From positions 1-64,000 of the forward strand of contig CAMMSL010000007.1 in the NCBI GenBank assembly GCA_946499505.1: DNA of 64,000 nucleotides, read 5' to 3'. Shown here in pieces: positions 10,333 through 38,735 of this stretch. The notes under the pieces were generated by a model. The model saw only the letters and a list, made by a program, of their open reading frames with translations. It had not been told where the DNA came from and did no database searches. Numbering within the stretch: position 1 is the stretch's first letter; every line of letters begins with the position of its first letter. The position numbers and the translations under genes are program-made. The stretch is from an uncultured Lachnoclostridium sp. (GTDB taxonomy: Bacteria; Bacillota; Clostridia; Lachnospirales; Lachnospiraceae).

Positions 10333-10496
10333 TTATAAGCACCTCAAAATATCATAAGTTCGAACTTTACATAGCTATAAAATTTGTTGAACCTTGAAAA
10401 TTCAATATCTTAACCAATAAAATGACATTTCATCCATTTTTCTTTTGAGATACAATCTCAAAAACATTTTCATACAACGAATCATATAAGTCTTAG

Positions 10497-29826: not shown

Positions 29827-30963
29827 TTATTCTGCCTGTGGCCAGTGCTCAAGCACGATCCCGTGGGCGATTCCGGGCACGCTTGCGCCTTCATTGAAAC
29901 TCACCGTTGACATGAGCGCTCCCGTGGGCACGAACAGCACGCGCTTCCACTCCCCCTTTTCAATCTTTGGGATGATAAAGGATGCAAGTGTCACCGCCGC
30001 GCAGCCGCAGCCGCTGCCGCCTGCATGTGTATCCTGTGTCTCCTGGTCATAGATCGTCATCCCGCAGTCCAGATGTTTCTTCCTTATATCATATCCTTTA
30101 TCCCTGACCAGATCGAACAGGATAGACTGTCCCACATATCCCAGATCTCCTGTGATGATCCGGTCGTAATCCTGCTCACTTCTTCCAAAGTCTTCAAAGT
30201 TCTGCACGATCGTGTCCATCGCTGCAGGAGCCATACACGCGCCCATGTTCTGGGAATCTTTCAGACCGTAGTCCACGATCTTGCCAACCGTCACGCCCGC
30301 GATGCGGACATGTGAGATGTGGGTAGTGCTGATGTCATCCTCATTCGGAGCGGCTGTCGGGCTTTCTTCCGGTTCCTCTGCCAGGACGTTTACCGCGGGA
30401 GCGTCTGATGCGGAAGTAGCCGCCGGCTCCGCTGCGCGCACAAGGAATGCCCCGCTTCCGGTCACCGTCCAGTGAGCGGACAGCGGCCGCTGATTTGCAT
30501 AACCAAGAGGAAACCTGAATTCTTTCTCTGCGCTCCCAAAATGGCTGGATGTAACTGCCAGCATATATTTCCCGTATCCCGCGGCAGCGCTCATTCCCGC
30601 AAGGGCCAGCGCCTCCCCTGAGGTGGAACACGCCCCGTACAGTCCGAACATGGGAATCTGAAGCGCTTCTACTCCCATGGATGTGGCGATTCCCTGCCGC
30701 AGCAGGTCTCCGCCAAAGAGATATCGGATCTCGTCCGCTTTCACATGTGCTTTTCCCAGAGCGAGCACGCATGCCTCTTTCTGCATGGTACTCTCCGCCT
30801 CTTCCCAGGTCTGTGCACCGAACAGGTCGTCTTCATTTGTCATATCAAAGAGCTTTCCCAGCGGGCCCGCTGCCTCTTTACTGCCTGTCACAGAGGCTGC
30901 GCTTACGATATAGGGGGCATTTTCAAAGAGAAGGCTCTGTTTTCCTTTTATTATCCGGTTCAT
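29827..30963 (-). CDS. spoVAD: Stage V sporulation protein AD
   Basis: The soluble, thiolase-fold SpoVA subunit that binds dipicolinic acid at the inner spore membrane. The product is about 378 residues, longer than the usual 340 because of an Ala/Pro/Glu-rich insertion (AEPAATSASDAPAVN to PNEDD). Recognisable parts are FENAPYIVSAASVTGSKEAAGPLG-type opening, LYGACSTSGEALALAGM with the thiolase-like Cys, and the C-terminal IIPKIEKGEWKRVLFVPTGA. The start at 30963 follows gaggatatca. A sigma-G-like promoter precedes it. Confidence 0.92.
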   Translation of the reverse strand: MNRIIKGKQSLLFENAPYIVSAASVTGSKEAAGPLGKLFDMTNEDDLFGAQTWEEAESTMQKEACVLALGKAHVKADEIRYLFGGDLLRQGIATSMGVEALQIPMFGLYGACSTSGEALALAGMSAAAGYGKYMLAVTSSHFGSAEKEFRFPLGYANQRPLSAHWTVTGSGAFLVRAAEPAATSASDAPAVNVLAEEPEESPTAAPNEDDISTTHISHVRIAGVTVGKIVDYGLKDSQNMGACMAPAAMDTIVQNFEDFGRSEQDYDRIITGDLGYVGQSILFDLVRDKGYDIRKKHLDCGMTIYDQETQDTHAGGSGCGCAAVTLASFIIPKIEKGEWKRVLFVPTGALMSTVSFNEGASVPGIAHGIVLEHWPQAE

Positions 30964-31002
30964 ATTGATATCCTCATTTCTGTGATTCTCTTGAGATACC
31001 AA

Positions 31003-31031
31003 TATTATCTTCATTGAGCCGGAAAATATGC
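31003..31031 (-). promoter_or_regulatory. Sigma-G/F-like forespore promoter of spoVAD
   Basis: Minus-strand GCATA (31027-31031) and GATAATA (31003-31009), 17 bases apart, match the forespore pattern GnATA / CATnnTA with one mismatch. It abuts the divergent TATAAT box (31032-31037) of the Abi-like gene. Confidence 0.5.
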
Positions 31032-31068
31032 TATAATTTTATTACTTTAGATTATACGGAGGGATACT

Positions 31069-32040
31069 ATGCTCACGATATACCAATTGATGAAATATTT
31101 AAGAAAGCATCACTCTGTTGCAGTGAAAAGCAACCAGGCACAAGCACTCCGGAATATCGGTTATTATCATGGATATAAAGGATATCGTTTTATCAGGCAG
31201 CCAAGACAGCGTATTTCTTTCACAAGTCTGGATGAAGTTATTGCCTTAAACAGCTTTGATATGCAATTAAAAACACTTTTTTATCCCAAAGTAATGTTTA
31301 TCGAAAATGCTCTCAAAAGCTACGTAATAGAATCCGTCCTGTTGGATAGTAAATCAGAAAATCTGGACGTGATATTTAATAGATCTATCACAAACTATCG
31401 TTTGTACCCCAGAGGAAGCGATACCTATCATAAGCAGTACGAAAAACGTATGAACTTAAAAGGAAAAATAAACAATGCTTTGTTAAGGGATTACTCTAAC
31501 AAGAAACAAACTGTTAACCATTTTTTTGATTCGGACCGTTCCATCCCCATATGGGCAATTTTTGAATCACTTACCCTGGGAGAATTTGGCACATTTTTTT
31601 CATGTGCAAACTCTAACGTAAAGTTAAATACATCCCACATTCTACATCTGCCAAGTAATCTTGACTCAGATGGCAAACTAACAGAGTATATAATCTACAC
31701 TATCAAAGATCTTAGAAATGCTGTTGCGCATAATAATGCAATTTTTGACACACGTTTTCAAACAAGCAGGATTAATCAGCGCCTTATTTCTCTTTTAGAA
31801 GTGGAAACAGGAATATCTAATCTTGATTTTAAATATATTGATGCATATGTAGTCCTTATCACATATACATTAAGGAAAATGGGTGAAACAAAAACTTCCT
31901 GCAAGCAATTTATATCATCTTTTATTACCTGTACAGATGCATTGCGTTCACAGCTTTCCGCAAATGTATGCAATCAGATTTTAGGCACCCAGCAACGTTC
32001 ACATCTCAAAGCTTTACAAAATTTTCTGAGTAAATCCTGA
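31069..32040 (+). CDS. Abi_2 (AbiD/AbiF-like) HEPN protein, probable phage-defence RNase
   Basis: A 323-residue protein of the Abi_2 family. The N-terminus has the LRNIGYYHGYKGYRF pattern of these proteins, and the key site is R216-N217-x3-H221 within DLRNAVAHNNAIF, a HEPN-type R-x4-H motif expected to cut RNA. Family members act in abortive infection or as toxins, and are considered related to Cas13 ancestors. The gene has cggaggg before its ATG, a TATAAT box at 31032-31037, lower GC than its neighbours, and sits alone between the two halves of a split spoVA locus. It is followed at once by a predicted small RNA. The family is clear; the biological role here is inference. Confidence 0.82.
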   Translation: MLTIYQLMKYLRKHHSVAVKSNQAQALRNIGYYHGYKGYRFIRQPRQRISFTSLDEVIALNSFDMQLKTLFYPKVMFIENALKSYVIESVLLDSKSENLDVIFNRSITNYRLYPRGSDTYHKQYEKRMNLKGKINNALLRDYSNKKQTVNHFFDSDRSIPIWAIFESLTLGEFGTFFSCANSNVKLNTSHILHLPSNLDSDGKLTEYIIYTIKDLRNAVAHNNAIFDTRFQTSRINQRLISLLEVETGISNLDFKYIDAYVVLITYTLRKMGETKTSCKQFISSFITCTDALRSQLSANVCNQILGTQQRSHLKALQNFLSKS

Positions 32041-32045
32041 AACTC

Positions 32046-32074
32046 TTGCATATTTTAGCTTGCAATGGTATAGT
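32046..32074 (+). promoter_or_regulatory. Promoter of the small RNA unit
   Basis: TTGCAT (32046-32051) and TATAGT (32069-32074) are separated by 17 bases. The -35 box begins 6 bases after the Abi-like stop codon, so the unit is independent but tightly linked. Confidence 0.6.
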
Positions 32075-32080
32075 ATAGCT

Positions 32081-32147
32081 ATGAATTGCGGTGGTCGTCT
32101 TCGGACAACACCTGAGAAGAGCCTGATGCGTCGGGCTCTTTTCTTTT
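32081..32147 (+). ncRNA. Predicted ~65-nt structured small RNA next to the Abi-like gene
   Basis: Between the promoter above and a terminator there is no start codon with an SD, but there are two adjacent hairpins. The first (32090-32112) closes with a cTTCGg tetraloop, an exceptionally stable RNA fold. The second is the terminator. The upstream bases gcaat/attgc could add a closing helix. The size and layout fit an sRNA or RNA antitoxin. It could instead be an attenuated leader of spoVAC. Confidence 0.5.
32117..32147 (+). terminator. Intrinsic terminator ending the small RNA
   Basis: A ten-pair stem, aagagcctga with tcgggctctt around a tgcg loop (one T-G pair), is followed directly by TTCTTTT. 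Confidence 0.85.
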
Positions 32148-32161
32148 ACCCAAATTTATAT

Positions 32162-32191
32162 GTATATTTAAAAAGGTAAAACAAAATACTA
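32162..32191 (+). promoter_or_regulatory. Sigma-G/F-like forespore promoter of spoVAC
   Basis: GTATA (32162-32166) and AATACTA (32185-32191), 18 bases apart, match the forespore consensus with one mismatch. It lies after the terminator and 57 bases before spoVAC. Confidence 0.45.
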
Positions 32192-32247
32192 TGGAAGACA
32201 GAATATAAGAAACACCGGCTGAAACCGGCAGTAAAGGAGAGCTTCCT

Positions 32248-32709
32248 ATGGATAAGATACAAAAACTAAAGAAAGAAAAAGAATATGAGAAATATGTCAA
32301 TGAAAAAACGCCCCGGCACAATGTCTGGCTGAACATGCTCAAGGCATTTCTGCTGGGAGGCGCAATCTGCACACTCGGGCAGATCATTTATCACTACTGT
32401 GAATTCCGCTCTTTGAGCACCGACGAGTGCAGCAGCTGGACTTCCCTGATGCTCGTCCTGATCAGTGTGCTGCTCACCGGGACCGGGATTTACCCCCGCC
32501 TGGCGAAATGGGGCGGCGCAGGAGCGCTCGTCCCCATCACCGGATTCGCCAACTCTGTAGCCGCACCTGCCATCGAATATAAGAAAGAAGGACAGGTATT
32601 CGGAATTGGCTGTAAGATCTTCACCATCGCCGGCCCCGTGATCCTGTATGGCATTTTCACCAGCTGGGTACTGGGATTTATCTACTGGATCTGGACGCTG
32701 ATACAGTAA
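32248..32709 (+). CDS. spoVAC: Stage V sporulation protein AC
   Basis: A 153-residue membrane subunit of the SpoVA complex, described in Bacillus as a mechanosensitive-type channel. A charged N-terminus is followed by about four hydrophobic segments with the family-typical LLGGAICTLGQ, WGGAGALVPITGFANS and GQVFGIGCKIF. The SD is aaaggagag. Canonical Clostridial loci read spoVAC-spoVAD-spoVAE on one strand; here this gene faces away from the other two. Confidence 0.92.
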   Translation: MDKIQKLKKEKEYEKYVNEKTPRHNVWLNMLKAFLLGGAICTLGQIIYHYCEFRSLSTDECSSWTSLMLVLISVLLTGTGIYPRLAKWGGAGALVPITGFANSVAAPAIEYKKEGQVFGIGCKIFTIAGPVILYGIFTSWVLGFIYWIWTLIQ

Positions 32710-37033: not shown

Positions 37034-37654
37034 ATGGATAATATTGAAAGAAGAGACCGGGAGATGGCATACATCTCCGACGAGTCTGTAATGGAGGAAC
37101 AGAAAGTATGCCACAGGATCCTGCAGCGCCTGAACACGGTGGACCGTTCCGATTTTGACGAGATCGGCAAGATTGTCAAAGAGCTTCTTGGAAAGTCAGA
37201 CGGGGCTTTTATCAATCCGCCGTTCTACTGTGACTACGGTTTCCACATCGAAGTGGGCAAAAATTTCTTTGCAAACTATAATTGTACGATCATTGATGTG
37301 GCGAAGGTAAAGATCGGCGACAACTGCCAGATGGCTCCCAATGTGGCCATATATACTGCAGGACATCCGCTCCATCCCGTCTCACGCAACTCTATGTATG
37401 AGTACGGCATCAGCGTGACTATCGGTGATAATGTATGGATCGGCGGCAACACGGTCATCATGCCCGGCGTGCACATCGGAAGCAATACCGTCATCGGCGC
37501 AGGGAGCGTGGTGACCAAAGATATTCCCGACTGGGTTGTGGCTGTGGGTAATCCGTGCAGAGTGATCAAACAGATCACAGAAGAGGATAAGAAATATTAT
37601 TATAAGGATAGAGAATTCGATCCTGAAGCGTGGGAGTATATATCCAGACTCTAA
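37034..37654 (+). CDS. Sugar O-acetyltransferase (maltose/galactoside type)
   Basis: A 206-residue left-handed beta-helix (hexapeptide) acetyltransferase, transferring acetyl from acetyl-CoA to a sugar in the cytoplasm. An N-terminal Mac domain is followed by hexapeptide repeats, with GYNCTII-like NYNCTIIDVAKVKIG, TAGHPLHPVSR with the catalytic His, and VWIGGNTVIMPGVHIG. The aaaggagga SD follows the palindrome directly. Placement after GH31 suggests a sugar-use operon. Confidence 0.9.
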   Translation: MDNIERRDREMAYISDESVMEEQKVCHRILQRLNTVDRSDFDEIGKIVKELLGKSDGAFINPPFYCDYGFHIEVGKNFFANYNCTIIDVAKVKIGDNCQMAPNVAIYTAGHPLHPVSRNSMYEYGISVTIGDNVWIGGNTVIMPGVHIGSNTVIGAGSVVTKDIPDWVVAVGNPCRVIKQITEEDKKYYYKDREFDPEAWEYISRL

Positions 37655-37689: not shown

Positions 37690-37790
37690 AACAGAGAACT
37701 ATCCGGCAGGCGTGGCGTTCCCCCGCATCTCTTTTGACCTCACGGGTGTGTGGCTGCCACGAAATTGACCACCTCGGATAGTTCTCTGTT
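37690..37790. terminator. Long nested inverted repeat, probable two-way terminator
   Basis: Sixteen-base perfect arms (aacagagaactatccg 37690-37705, cggatagttctctgtt 37775-37790) enclose 69 bases that contain further arms cgtggc (37711-37716) and gccacg (37756-37761). A run of As on the left and TTTTAT on the right would end transcripts from both convergent genes. The cloverleaf-like interior is more than a simple terminator needs. Confidence 0.65.
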
Positions 37791-38735
37791 TTATACTAAT
37801 CCCATACTCCTCAATATATACAGCCAGCCCGTCAGTGTAAATGCACTGAACAGTGTCGTCAGCATGACCACGCTGGATGTCAGCACGCCTTCATGTCCCA
37901 TATTGCGCGCCATTACATAGCAGCTCACCGTCGTCGCCGAGCTGAGCATGACGAGGATTGCCACCAGTTCTTCCCTGCGGAACCCCATCCACACGGCCAG
38001 CGGCAGGAACAAAGCGGCAAACAGCACCAGCTTCATAACAGAGGCTGTAGCTGCCGGCTTTACTTTTCCGAAGGCCTTCTTCAGGTCGAAGCTTGCGCCC
38101 ATCGCCATCAGCCCTAGGGGAGTAGCCGTCGCCCCGATATCCGATACCGTCTTCTCCAGAATGGACGGCATAGGCAGCTTGAGGGCTGACCAGACAAGCC
38201 CCGCCACGATACCGAGGATGATCGGATTTGTAATGATTCCTTTGAGCGTCGTCAGCCACACTTCCTTGTCCAGCTTCTTTCTCTCCGGCTTAAAGAATGA
38301 GAGTACAACAACCGCCATGACATTATACAGCGGCACGCTTCCGATGATCATAAGCGGGGCCATCCCCGCATCCCCGTATATATTCTGGATAAACGCAATC
38401 CCCAGAAGCGCTGCGCTGCTCCGGTACGACGCCTGAATAAATTCTCCCTGTATGCTCTTGTCCCTCCATAAAAAGGACACCAGCGCCGCAATAATAATAG
38501 ATATCAGCGTAACGGCAAAACAGAACAGAACAAATTTCAAGTTCCATACCTGAGAGAAATCCACTGTCGAGAGATCTTCAAACAGCAGGACCGGCAGCGG
38601 AACGAGGAATACGAATTTATTCATTTTTGATGCAAACACATCGTCGATCAGGCCGAGTTTATTTAAGATAAATCCCAGTACCATCAGAAGGAAAATGGGA
38701 ACAGTGGCATTCAGGCTGAAGATCAGATTGTCCAT
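37791..38735 (-). CDS. AEC family transporter
   Basis: A 314-residue auxin-efflux-carrier-type permease with ten hydrophobic segments and a cytoplasmic loop in the middle (FFKPERKKLDKEV). Bacterial members move malate, malonate or similar organic acids; the substrate here is unknown. The gene begins NLIFSLNATVPIFLLMVLGF. It stands alone on the minus strand, next to the two-component system. Confidence 0.85.
   Translation of the reverse strand: MDNLIFSLNATVPIFLLMVLGFILNKLGLIDDVFASKMNKFVFLVPLPVLLFEDLSTVDFSQVWNLKFVLFCFAVTLISIIIAALVSFLWRDKSIQGEFIQASYRSSAALLGIAFIQNIYGDAGMAPLMIIGSVPLYNVMAVVVLSFFKPERKKLDKEVWLTTLKGIITNPIILGIVAGLVWSALKLPMPSILEKTVSDIGATATPLGLMAMGASFDLKKAFGKVKPAATASVMKLVLFAALFLPLAVWMGFRREELVAILVMLSSATTVSCYVMARNMGHEGVLTSSVVMLTTLFSAFTLTGWLYILRSMGLV

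What the first reader, a model, noticed from the sequence alone, without database searches (positions are those of the whole stretch)
31032..32147. Abi_2/AbiF-like HEPN gene with a compact small-RNA unit immediately downstream
Seen: a 323-codon Abi_2-type gene with an R216-x4-H221 HEPN motif. Six bases after its stop a TTGCAT-17-TATAGT promoter begins, followed by a cTTCGg-capped hairpin and a strong terminator, giving a predicted RNA of about 65 nt. Known: HEPN proteins of this class are RNase toxins or abortive-infection effectors, and AbiF-type proteins have been proposed as relatives of Cas13 that work with a neighbouring ncRNA. Inference: the RNA may be the antitoxin or guide-like partner of this protein. 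This is the best candidate in the window for a little-known system.
Basis: partly seen in the sequence, partly recalled or inferred. Interest (0 to 1): 0.78.

Follow-up and report, generated by a model that had tools for sequence, protein, structure and literature searches.

The report
Toxin gene with its antitoxin-like RNA
A bacterial self-poisoning gene of the family thought to have given rise to Cas13 travels across distant bacteria with one small folded RNA right behind it, and the same RNA turns up without the gene in many phages, which suggests that the RNA is the antidote and that phages carry copies of it to disarm the defence.

Summary
ORF 31069-32040 is an Abi_2 HEPN protein (PF07751; R216-x4-H221 invariant in 43 of 43 aligned sequences; AlphaFold model matches PbAbiF bound to its ncRNA, 8vz6). 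Behind it lies a promoter-like site and a ~65-nt two-hairpin RNA. This RNA ("R1") follows 77 of 80 homologues (36-90% identity) from several phyla, its pairing is kept by covariation, and it reaches no Rfam gathering score, abiF (RF03085) included. The spoVA genes adjoin 1 of the 80, so the RNA goes with abi. Best reading: an RNA-inhibited HEPN RNase, like published AbiF systems, with another RNA class placed downstream.

New: the RNA also occurs alone. Of the 30 best hits in 397 family genomes, 18 have no Abi_2 nearby. Of 69 IMG/VR loci with R1, 66 have none in the stretch held; 0 of 25 whole records checked encode Abi_2. It is in SPbeta, phi3T and lytic Bacillus phages, in gene-free or tRNA islands; 6 of 25 records also hold an abiF-RNA-like core, 5 of them 237-489 nt from R1. 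I infer decoy antitoxins (cf. pseudo-ToxI). No function was tested. The principal AbiF paper (Cell 2025) is not held, so priority for the RNA itself is open.

The parts
31069..32040 (+). Abi_2/AbiD-F family HEPN gene, 323 aa (putative RNase toxin)
   Evidence: PF07751 E 7.2e-28; PADLOC AbiD E 1.3e-21; PbAbiF 8vz6
31714..31731 (+). HEPN catalytic motif R216-N-A-V-A-H221
   Evidence: R216 and H221 invariant in 43 of 43 aligned sequences
32046..32051 (+). -35 box TTGCAT of the RNA promoter (predicted)
   Evidence: pair of boxes in 47 of 64 units; not listed by the scan
32069..32074 (+). -10 box TATAGT (predicted)
32081..32148 (+). predicted small RNA (class R1), about 65 nt: leader GAAUUGC, hairpin 1, hairpin 2, U-rich tail
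   Evidence: a phage copy lies between two tRNAs with 62 nt between them
32090..32112 (+). hairpin 1: GGUG/CACC outer stem, internal loop, GUC/GAC with UUCG loop
32114..32143 (+). hairpin 2: terminator stem with loop GA(UGCG)UC

Best explanation
The locus is a two-part RNA-protein toxin-antitoxin/abortive-infection module. The Abi_2 protein is a HEPN RNase, probably a homodimer, whose activity is blocked by the small RNA bound as an RNP. Shown here: the gene, the conserved catalytic motif and fold, the conserved RNA unit, its promoter-like site, kept pairing of both hairpins, and near-constant linkage. Inferred: the RNA is made in excess from its own promoter just behind the gene, binds the protein (hairpin 1 with its UNCG cap and the GAUGCGUC loop of hairpin 2 being the likely contacts), and keeps it off. 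When a phage stops host transcription or breaks host DNA the RNA runs out first, the RNase is freed and growth stops. Also inferred: the many phage-borne copies of the RNA without any Abi_2 gene are decoy antitoxins that keep such host RNases silent, as pseudo-ToxI does for ToxIN.
For: Protein family, motif and fold: 8vz6 E 6.4e-9; next match E 0.5; pLDDT 91.5; 8vz6, E 2.4e-4, prob 1.00, TM 0.61/0.65, rmsd 6.8; the only match with E <= 0.001. Linkage: RNA behind 77 of 80 homologues, 14 of the 16 best family genomes, and the three plasmid/satellite relatives fetched. Structure: 97.0% of cells paired against 79.2% in shuffles, covariation score 0.690 against 0.317, and at most 0.272 for any slide. 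Not abiF RNA nor any other Rfam family at its gathering score. Precedent: C. difficile AbiF is toxic and neutralised by direct binding of RNA RCd22 (PMC12373285: abstract, sections 7, 11 and 13 read). Phage copies: 69 of 129 pattern-selected IMG/VR loci (68 at 43 bits or more, L215 at 28.5), 66 of the 69 without Abi_2 in the held stretch, 0 of 25 whole records (22 of those IMG/VR records and 3 named phages) with PF07751; in SPbeta, phi3T, SIOphi, Goe17 and others; pairing kept. Among 49 phage copies 0 have the promoter pair (47 of 64 abi-linked, 5 of 19 bacterial orphans) and 12 of 47 have a U run (58 of 64 abi-linked, 11 of 11 bacterial orphans), so in phages hairpin 2 persists mostly without a U run. 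AbiF-RNA-like cores in 6 of 25 R1-bearing records, reversed control 0 of 25, 5 of 6 within 237-489 nt of R1 on the same strand.
Against: No expression, toxicity, binding or phage data exist for this locus; nothing here shows contact between RNA and protein. In one search one measure does not exceed chance: 15 of 19 pairs have a double change, but 114 of 500 shuffles reach that. Among the 16 best family genomes G315 (L011) shows no R1 in the 119 nt before its contig ends and G219 (L017) holds a fragment only; among the 80, L075 has none, L069 is a broken gene and L105 ends 91 nt after the gene. More distant Abi_2 proteins lack R1 behind them; some have another RNA upstream. Eighteen of 30 RNA hits in bacteria lack the gene, so the RNA may have a role of its own. 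In phage copies helix 1 shows no double change (it is nearly invariant) and two inner positions are unpaired in 22 and 31 of 48 copies. Loop conservation in phage copies is partly built in, since the first scan pattern required GATGCGTC; in the second scan, which did not, 5 of 7 distinct orphan copies keep GATGCGTC or GATGAGTC. With the RF03085 model itself only 3 of 25 R1-bearing records match at E <= 1, one over its cut-off.
Confidence: 0.78

Rival explanations
1. The RNA is a solo regulatory sRNA with its own target, and the Abi_2 gene merely sits beside it often; the protein does not bind it.
For: The RNA stands alone in 18 of the 30 best family hits (L161 has only 247 nt held upstream and cannot be judged) and in 66 of 69 viral loci. 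By eye no neighbour gene is common to the 18; L136 and L137 share an AAA-ATPase-like family.
Against: Within this Abi_2 clade the link is near-constant across phyla (77 of 80) and seen again in relatives not used for the model; a chance neighbour would not persist. Published relatives of the protein act with neighbouring RNAs (PMC12373285).
Confidence: 0.12
2. Guide-like partner: the RNA programs the HEPN protein to cut chosen targets, as crRNA does for Cas13.
For: AbiF proteins are proposed ancestors of Cas13 (PMC12165695 and PMC12737573, passages seen).
Against: The RNA is folded almost throughout and its 5' leader and loops are conserved, not variable; no repeat-spacer layout was seen in the abi-linked loci searched with the model.
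Confidence: 0.04
3. Phage and solitary bacterial copies are relics of lost modules or harmless passengers, not counter-defence.
For: Orphan copies in bacteria lie beside varied genes; some abi genes next to the RNA are broken or truncated (five of 12).
Against: No trace of abi by tblastn (E <= 0.01) in the held flanks of the 18 orphans; compensatory changes in phage copies (13 of 19 pairs, 1 of 500 shuffles as high; covariation 0.455 against 0.179) and in bacterial orphans (12 of 19, 0 of 500); presence in lytic phages (that these Herelleviridae are lytic is recalled); co-occurrence with abiF-like RNA.
Confidence: 0.25
4. Simple terminator or 3' UTR of the abi gene.
For: Hairpin 2 is followed by a U run in most abi-linked units (58 of 64).
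Against: Own promoter-like site, conserved first hairpin, and persistence of both hairpins in phages mostly without a U run and between tRNAs.
Confidence: 0.02

Closest known systems
AbiF with RCd22 (C. difficile phi027 prophage), PMC12373285
   Same: Abi_2 HEPN protein with RNxxxH motif plus a small hairpin RNA with promoter and terminator beside it; there the RNA is shown to bind and neutralise the toxin.
   Different: There the RNA is upstream, co-transcribed, carries two abiF motifs (RF03085), about 100-130 nt; here it is downstream with its own promoter-like site, one copy, about 65 nt, and not RF03085.
PbAbiF-AbiFr RNP, PDB 8vz6 (Zilberzwige-Tal et al., Cell 2025; the paper itself not held, known from PMC12737573, PMC12373285 and PMC12804078)
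   Same: Best PDB match by sequence profile and by fold; RNA-inhibited HEPN dimer.
   Different: 17% identity in the structural alignment (rmsd 6.8); its RNA sequence could not be compared with R1 here.
abiF RNA, Rfam RF03085
   Same: Short structured RNA next to Abi_2 genes; also in phages (S-CREM1 and three others per PMC9964418).
   Different: Different structure and sequence; no RF03085 match at the window locus.
pseudo-ToxI of phage PhiTE against ToxIN (PMC3475682, abstract and outline read)
   Same: Phage RNA resembling a host RNA antitoxin.
   Different: Unrelated toxin and RNA; there function is shown, here inferred; here the copies sit in SPbeta-like and Herelleviridae phages and in tRNA/ncRNA islands.

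Membership tests
Abi_2 / AbiD-F HEPN proteins | Pfam PF07751 over cut-off | tested here: met
   98.6 bits against 25.6
Abi_2 / AbiD-F HEPN proteins | R-x4-6-H HEPN motif conserved (motif definition recalled; RNxxxH form in PMC12373285) | tested here: met
   R216 and H221 invariant in 43 of 43 aligned sequences
Abi_2 / AbiD-F HEPN proteins | AbiF fold | tested here: met
   8vz6 E 2.4e-4, prob 1.00, TM 0.61/0.65
Abi_2 / AbiD-F HEPN proteins | RNase toxicity | not testable with these tools
   bench assay needed
abiF RNA (RF03085) | match to the Rfam model | tested here: not met
   no match in the window at gathering score nor in 31000-32300 at E<=5; none at gathering score in 20 chosen loci, 17 of them with R1
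Type III toxin-antitoxin | RNA directly inhibits the protein toxin | not testable with these tools
   inferred from relatives only
Type III toxin-antitoxin | antitoxin made of tandem repeats (called a key feature in PMC12373285) | tested here: not met
   one R1 match in the window and one match over 20 bits behind each abi-linked gene searched; two R1-type matches at L132, which has no abi
Type III toxin-antitoxin | RNA upstream, co-transcribed across a terminator | tested here: not met
   RNA is downstream with its own promoter-like site; transcription itself not measured
Cas13-like RNA-guided effector | variable guide segment in the RNA | tested here: not met
   no long variable unpaired segment in 64 aligned RNAs
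Phage antitoxin mimic (pseudo-ToxI type) | homologous RNA in phage without the toxin gene | tested here: met
   66 of 69 loci; 0 of 25 whole records with PF07751 (some are fragments)
Phage antitoxin mimic (pseudo-ToxI type) | RNA rescues phage from the host toxin | not testable with these tools
   bench assay needed

The most novel reading that the evidence does not exclude
Large temperate and lytic phages, including the model phage SPbeta and Bacillus Herelleviridae, carry gene-free islands in which antitoxin RNAs of several RNA-inhibited toxin families (R1, abiF-like, possibly DUF3800-VIII and skipping-rope) are lined up, often among tRNAs, as a general counter-defence kit; solitary copies in bacterial chromosomes serve as antidotes to incoming modules. 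Rfam RNAs of unknown role that sit in such islands could then be read as antitoxins whose toxin partners can be looked up.
Probability: 0.45. Interest if true: 0.92.

Novelty: new variant of a known kind. Interest (0 to 1): 0.8.

Why it matters
It adds a further RNA class to the AbiF/Abi_2 systems from which Cas13 is thought to descend, with a reversed gene order. It also gives a directly testable meaning to untranslated islands in well-studied phages: B. subtilis 168 itself carries SPbeta (PMC8270828), so one simple strain pair can ask whether a phage RNA disarms a HEPN RNase. If so, RNA mimicry of antitoxins, for which PhiTE (PMC3475682) is the one case that I saw in print, may be a common phage strategy.

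Tried and rejected
Rfam in the window: only skipping-rope at 37698-37782. The weak hit to ctRNA_p42d over hairpin 2 (26.3 bits, E 0.0038, gathering 50) was rejected as a generic terminator; the other seven hits there were weaker still. The sigma-70 and terminator scan listed neither promoter nor terminator. BLAST of the window RNA against phages found nothing and against plasmids two hits at E 0.9; phage copies came to light only through degenerate patterns plus the covariance model. L113 looked like an R1 start next to RF03085 but has no hairpin 1, rejected. R1 matches below 37.8 bits were not used to count orphans: a comparison family gave up to 30.7 bits. In L132 an RF03085-like element before R1 is visible by eye, but Rfam gave no match at E<=0.1, so it is not counted. 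A genome sample around a Bacillaceae relative gave only 34 genomes, one with a good R1 match. An AUGC(G) stretch recurring in several Abi_2-linked RNAs was noticed by eye and not tested.

Literature seen: PMC12373285 (abstract, sections 7, 11, 13 whole, passages); PMC12737573, PMC12165695, PMC9964418, PMC8270828, PMC8040213, PMC12804078 (passages); PMC3475682 (abstract, outline). Not held: Weinberg 2017; Zilberzwige-Tal 2025 did not turn up in the library; its covariance models AbiF5_iter3 and diverse_rna are named in PMC12804078 and may already include R1. Searches that showed no report of phage-borne Abi_2 antitoxin decoys in their listings: (open-licence library only). S-CREM1's abiF RNA was reported (PMC9964418), with no decoy reading in the passages seen.

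Full report
WHAT IS THERE. The finding is real at the stated place. The gene 31069-32040 (323 aa) is an Abi_2 protein (PF07751, E 7.2e-28; PADLOC AbiD). It is the only Abi_2 match in this genome at E <= 0.001. Behind its stop come TTGCAT-17-TATAGT and a two-hairpin RNA that folds with z = -4.25. The promoter and terminator scan alone would not have called it; the case rests on comparison.

THE RNA IS CONSERVED WITH THE GENE. A protein-pattern scan of one genome per species (143 relatives, best 80 kept) gave 80 homologous loci, 36-90% identical, from records titled Lachnospiraceae, Veillonellales, Bacilli, Paenibacillus, Coriobacteria genera, Bifidobacterium, Treponema and others. The scan used protein only, so it could not favour the RNA. 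In 77 of 80 the same RNA lies downstream. The misses: L105 (contig ends 91 nt after the gene), L069 (broken gene), L075 (no RNA found). Of 64 distinct RNAs aligned (repeated copies and those without the GATGCGTC-type loop were left out), 97.0% of pair cells form standard pairs against 79.2% in shuffles, and the covariation score is 0.690 against 0.317 in shuffles and 0.124-0.272 when slid; 15 of 19 pairs show changes on both sides, but 114 of 500 shuffles reach that count, so it is the cells and the score that carry the case. A covariance model (R1) found the RNA also behind relatives outside the training set, and behind the three plasmid or satellite-phage relatives that I fetched out of 28 records listed: Enterococcus plasmids at 68.3 and 60.2 bits, a Streptococcus satellite phage weakly at 29.7. 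Of the 16 genomes with the best protein matches in the family search, 14 have it (9 at 42 bits or more, 5 at 26-35 bits, all right behind the gene); in G315 the contig ends 119 nt after the gene without it, and G219 holds only a fragment. The spoVA genes adjoin only L036 of the 80.

WHAT CLASS OF RNA. No Rfam 15 family reaches its gathering score here or in 20 chosen loci (17 with R1), two tRNAs apart; abiF (RF03085) does not appear even at E<=5 in the locus. RF03085 matches do occur beside other Abi_2 genes of the same bacterial family, on either side: of the 20 RF03085 loci held, 12 show an Abi_2 gene and 8 do not. A third RNA type sits upstream of more distant Abi_2 genes (L019, L020, L023, L027, L030, L031), with a terminator loop CAUGCGUG in four of them that recalls the GAUGCGUC loop here (by eye). 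So the Abi_2 superfamily seems to use several RNA classes.

PROTEIN. 28 columns are invariant in 43 sequences, the window and 42 relatives chosen from the 80, among them R216, N217, A220 and H221. AlphaFold gives pLDDT 91.5. The best PDB match is PbAbiF bound to ncRNA, by profile (E 6.4e-9) and by fold (E 2.4e-4, TM 0.61/0.65, rmsd 6.8).

THE RNA WITHOUT THE GENE. In 397 family genomes 62 have R1 matches at E <= 0.001. I judged the 30 best (37.8 bits or more; background in another family up to 30.7 bits), the window's own included: 12 lie next to Abi_2, five of these truncated or broken, and 18 do not, with no remnant by tblastn in the held flanks of up to 1.5 kb. L161 has only 247 nt held upstream and cannot be judged. 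For nine of the 18 I ran neighbours that looked like TA or mobile genes through Pfam (11 proteins): RelB and YoeB (L140), AbiEii (L137), SocA/Panacea (L145), phage integrase (L143), ORF6N (L157), RlaP (L132), RelA/SpoT (L134), AAA-ATPase-like (L136, L137); L146 gave none. They were picked by eye and no background rate was measured. Pairs of the bacterial orphans still covary (96.9% of cells paired, 12 of 19 pairs with double changes, 0 of 500 shuffles).

PHAGES. In 25 whole records, 22 IMG/VR and 3 named phages, none matches PF07751 at E <= 0.001 (some IMG/VR records are fragments). BLAST with a phage copy finds 56 Bacillus phage records; the 40 rows listed all overlap the R1 segment. SPbeta has it in a 1.68-kb stretch without annotated genes between yonN and yonK, SIOphi and Goe17 in similar gaps, the latter among tRNAs. 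In L289 the RNA lies between tRNA-Gly (ends 5553) and tRNA-Gln (starts 5616), which would leave a 62-nt RNA after tRNA processing. Phage copies keep pairing (90.8% of cells against 76.2% in shuffles; 13 of 19 pairs with double changes, 1 of 500 shuffles as high; helix 1 nearly invariant, two inner positions often unpaired, an alignment fitted to the model), while 0 of 49 have the promoter pair (31 have a -10-like box alone) and only 12 of 47 a U run. For 27 of 49 copies the nearest abi-linked RNA is that of L091 (Lederbergia) or L073 (Aquibacillus), ties included, at 65-87% identity (that both are Bacillaceae is recalled). An abiF-RNA-like core is present in 6 of the 25 records (reversed control 0 of 25); in 5 of 6 it lies 237-489 nt from R1 on the same strand. 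The RF03085 model itself gives 3 of 25 at E <= 1, one of them, in L284, over the gathering score (43.6 against 37).

MECHANISM. The parsimonious reading is an RNA-silenced HEPN RNase, as shown for AbiF of C. difficile (PMC12373285, where R202 and H207 presumably play the part of R216 and H221 here). A separate promoter for the RNA would give an excess of a short-lived inhibitor over a stable toxin; loss of host transcription during infection would free the toxin. That a phage gains by bringing its own copy would explain why the RNA, and not the gene, spreads in phages, and why some phages hold a second Abi-type RNA close by. This last part is inference; the precedent is pseudo-ToxI (PMC3475682).

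NOVELTY. The protein-RNA pairing is a new variant of a known kind. The phage side appears unreported in the listings of the library searched, with the limits named in Tried and rejected.

Noticed in passing
window 37698-37782 (-): Skipping-rope RNA (RF02924, 57.5 bits), between ORFs that by eye look like a permease (37791-38735) and an acetyltransferase (37034-37654); the same family also occurs in the tRNA/ncRNA island of phage Goe17 (L294 3439-3509) that carries R1.
   Followed up: partly
L292 2028-3708 (SPbeta, yonN-yonK gap): 1.68-kb stretch without annotated genes that holds R1 (2576-2645) and a DUF3800-VIII RNA (RF03075, 3387-3452); may be an island of several structured RNAs.
   Followed up: partly
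L284 about 10400-10432; NC_001884.1 59625-59656: A short conserved element (CTCATCTGCCATGTG..AGAAGGAG) shared by this phage, SPbeta-like phages, a Bifidobacterium phage and Vibrio phages, without an Rfam match in L284.
   Followed up: no
L241 about 1530-1580 and relatives: A conserved hairpin-like stretch (CCCAT...ATGGG) directly before R1 in SPbeta-like phages, possibly another RNA unit (by eye).
   Followed up: no
L019, L020, L023, L027, L030, L031: A third Abi_2-linked RNA type upstream of more distant Abi_2 genes; in L027 two tandem copies by eye.
   Followed up: partly
L112, L114, L115, L117, L125, L126, L129, L130: 8 of 20 RF03085 (abiF RNA) loci show no Abi_2 gene in the held stretch, so abiF RNA too may occur alone; L126 is short.
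   Followed up: no
L289 445-1018 and 5550-5619: A ROOL RNA and R1 in one viral tRNA array.
   Followed up: no
window 29827-32709: spoVAD (-) and spoVAC (+) lie back to back with the abi-RNA unit between them; the same arrangement is seen in L036.
   Followed up: partly
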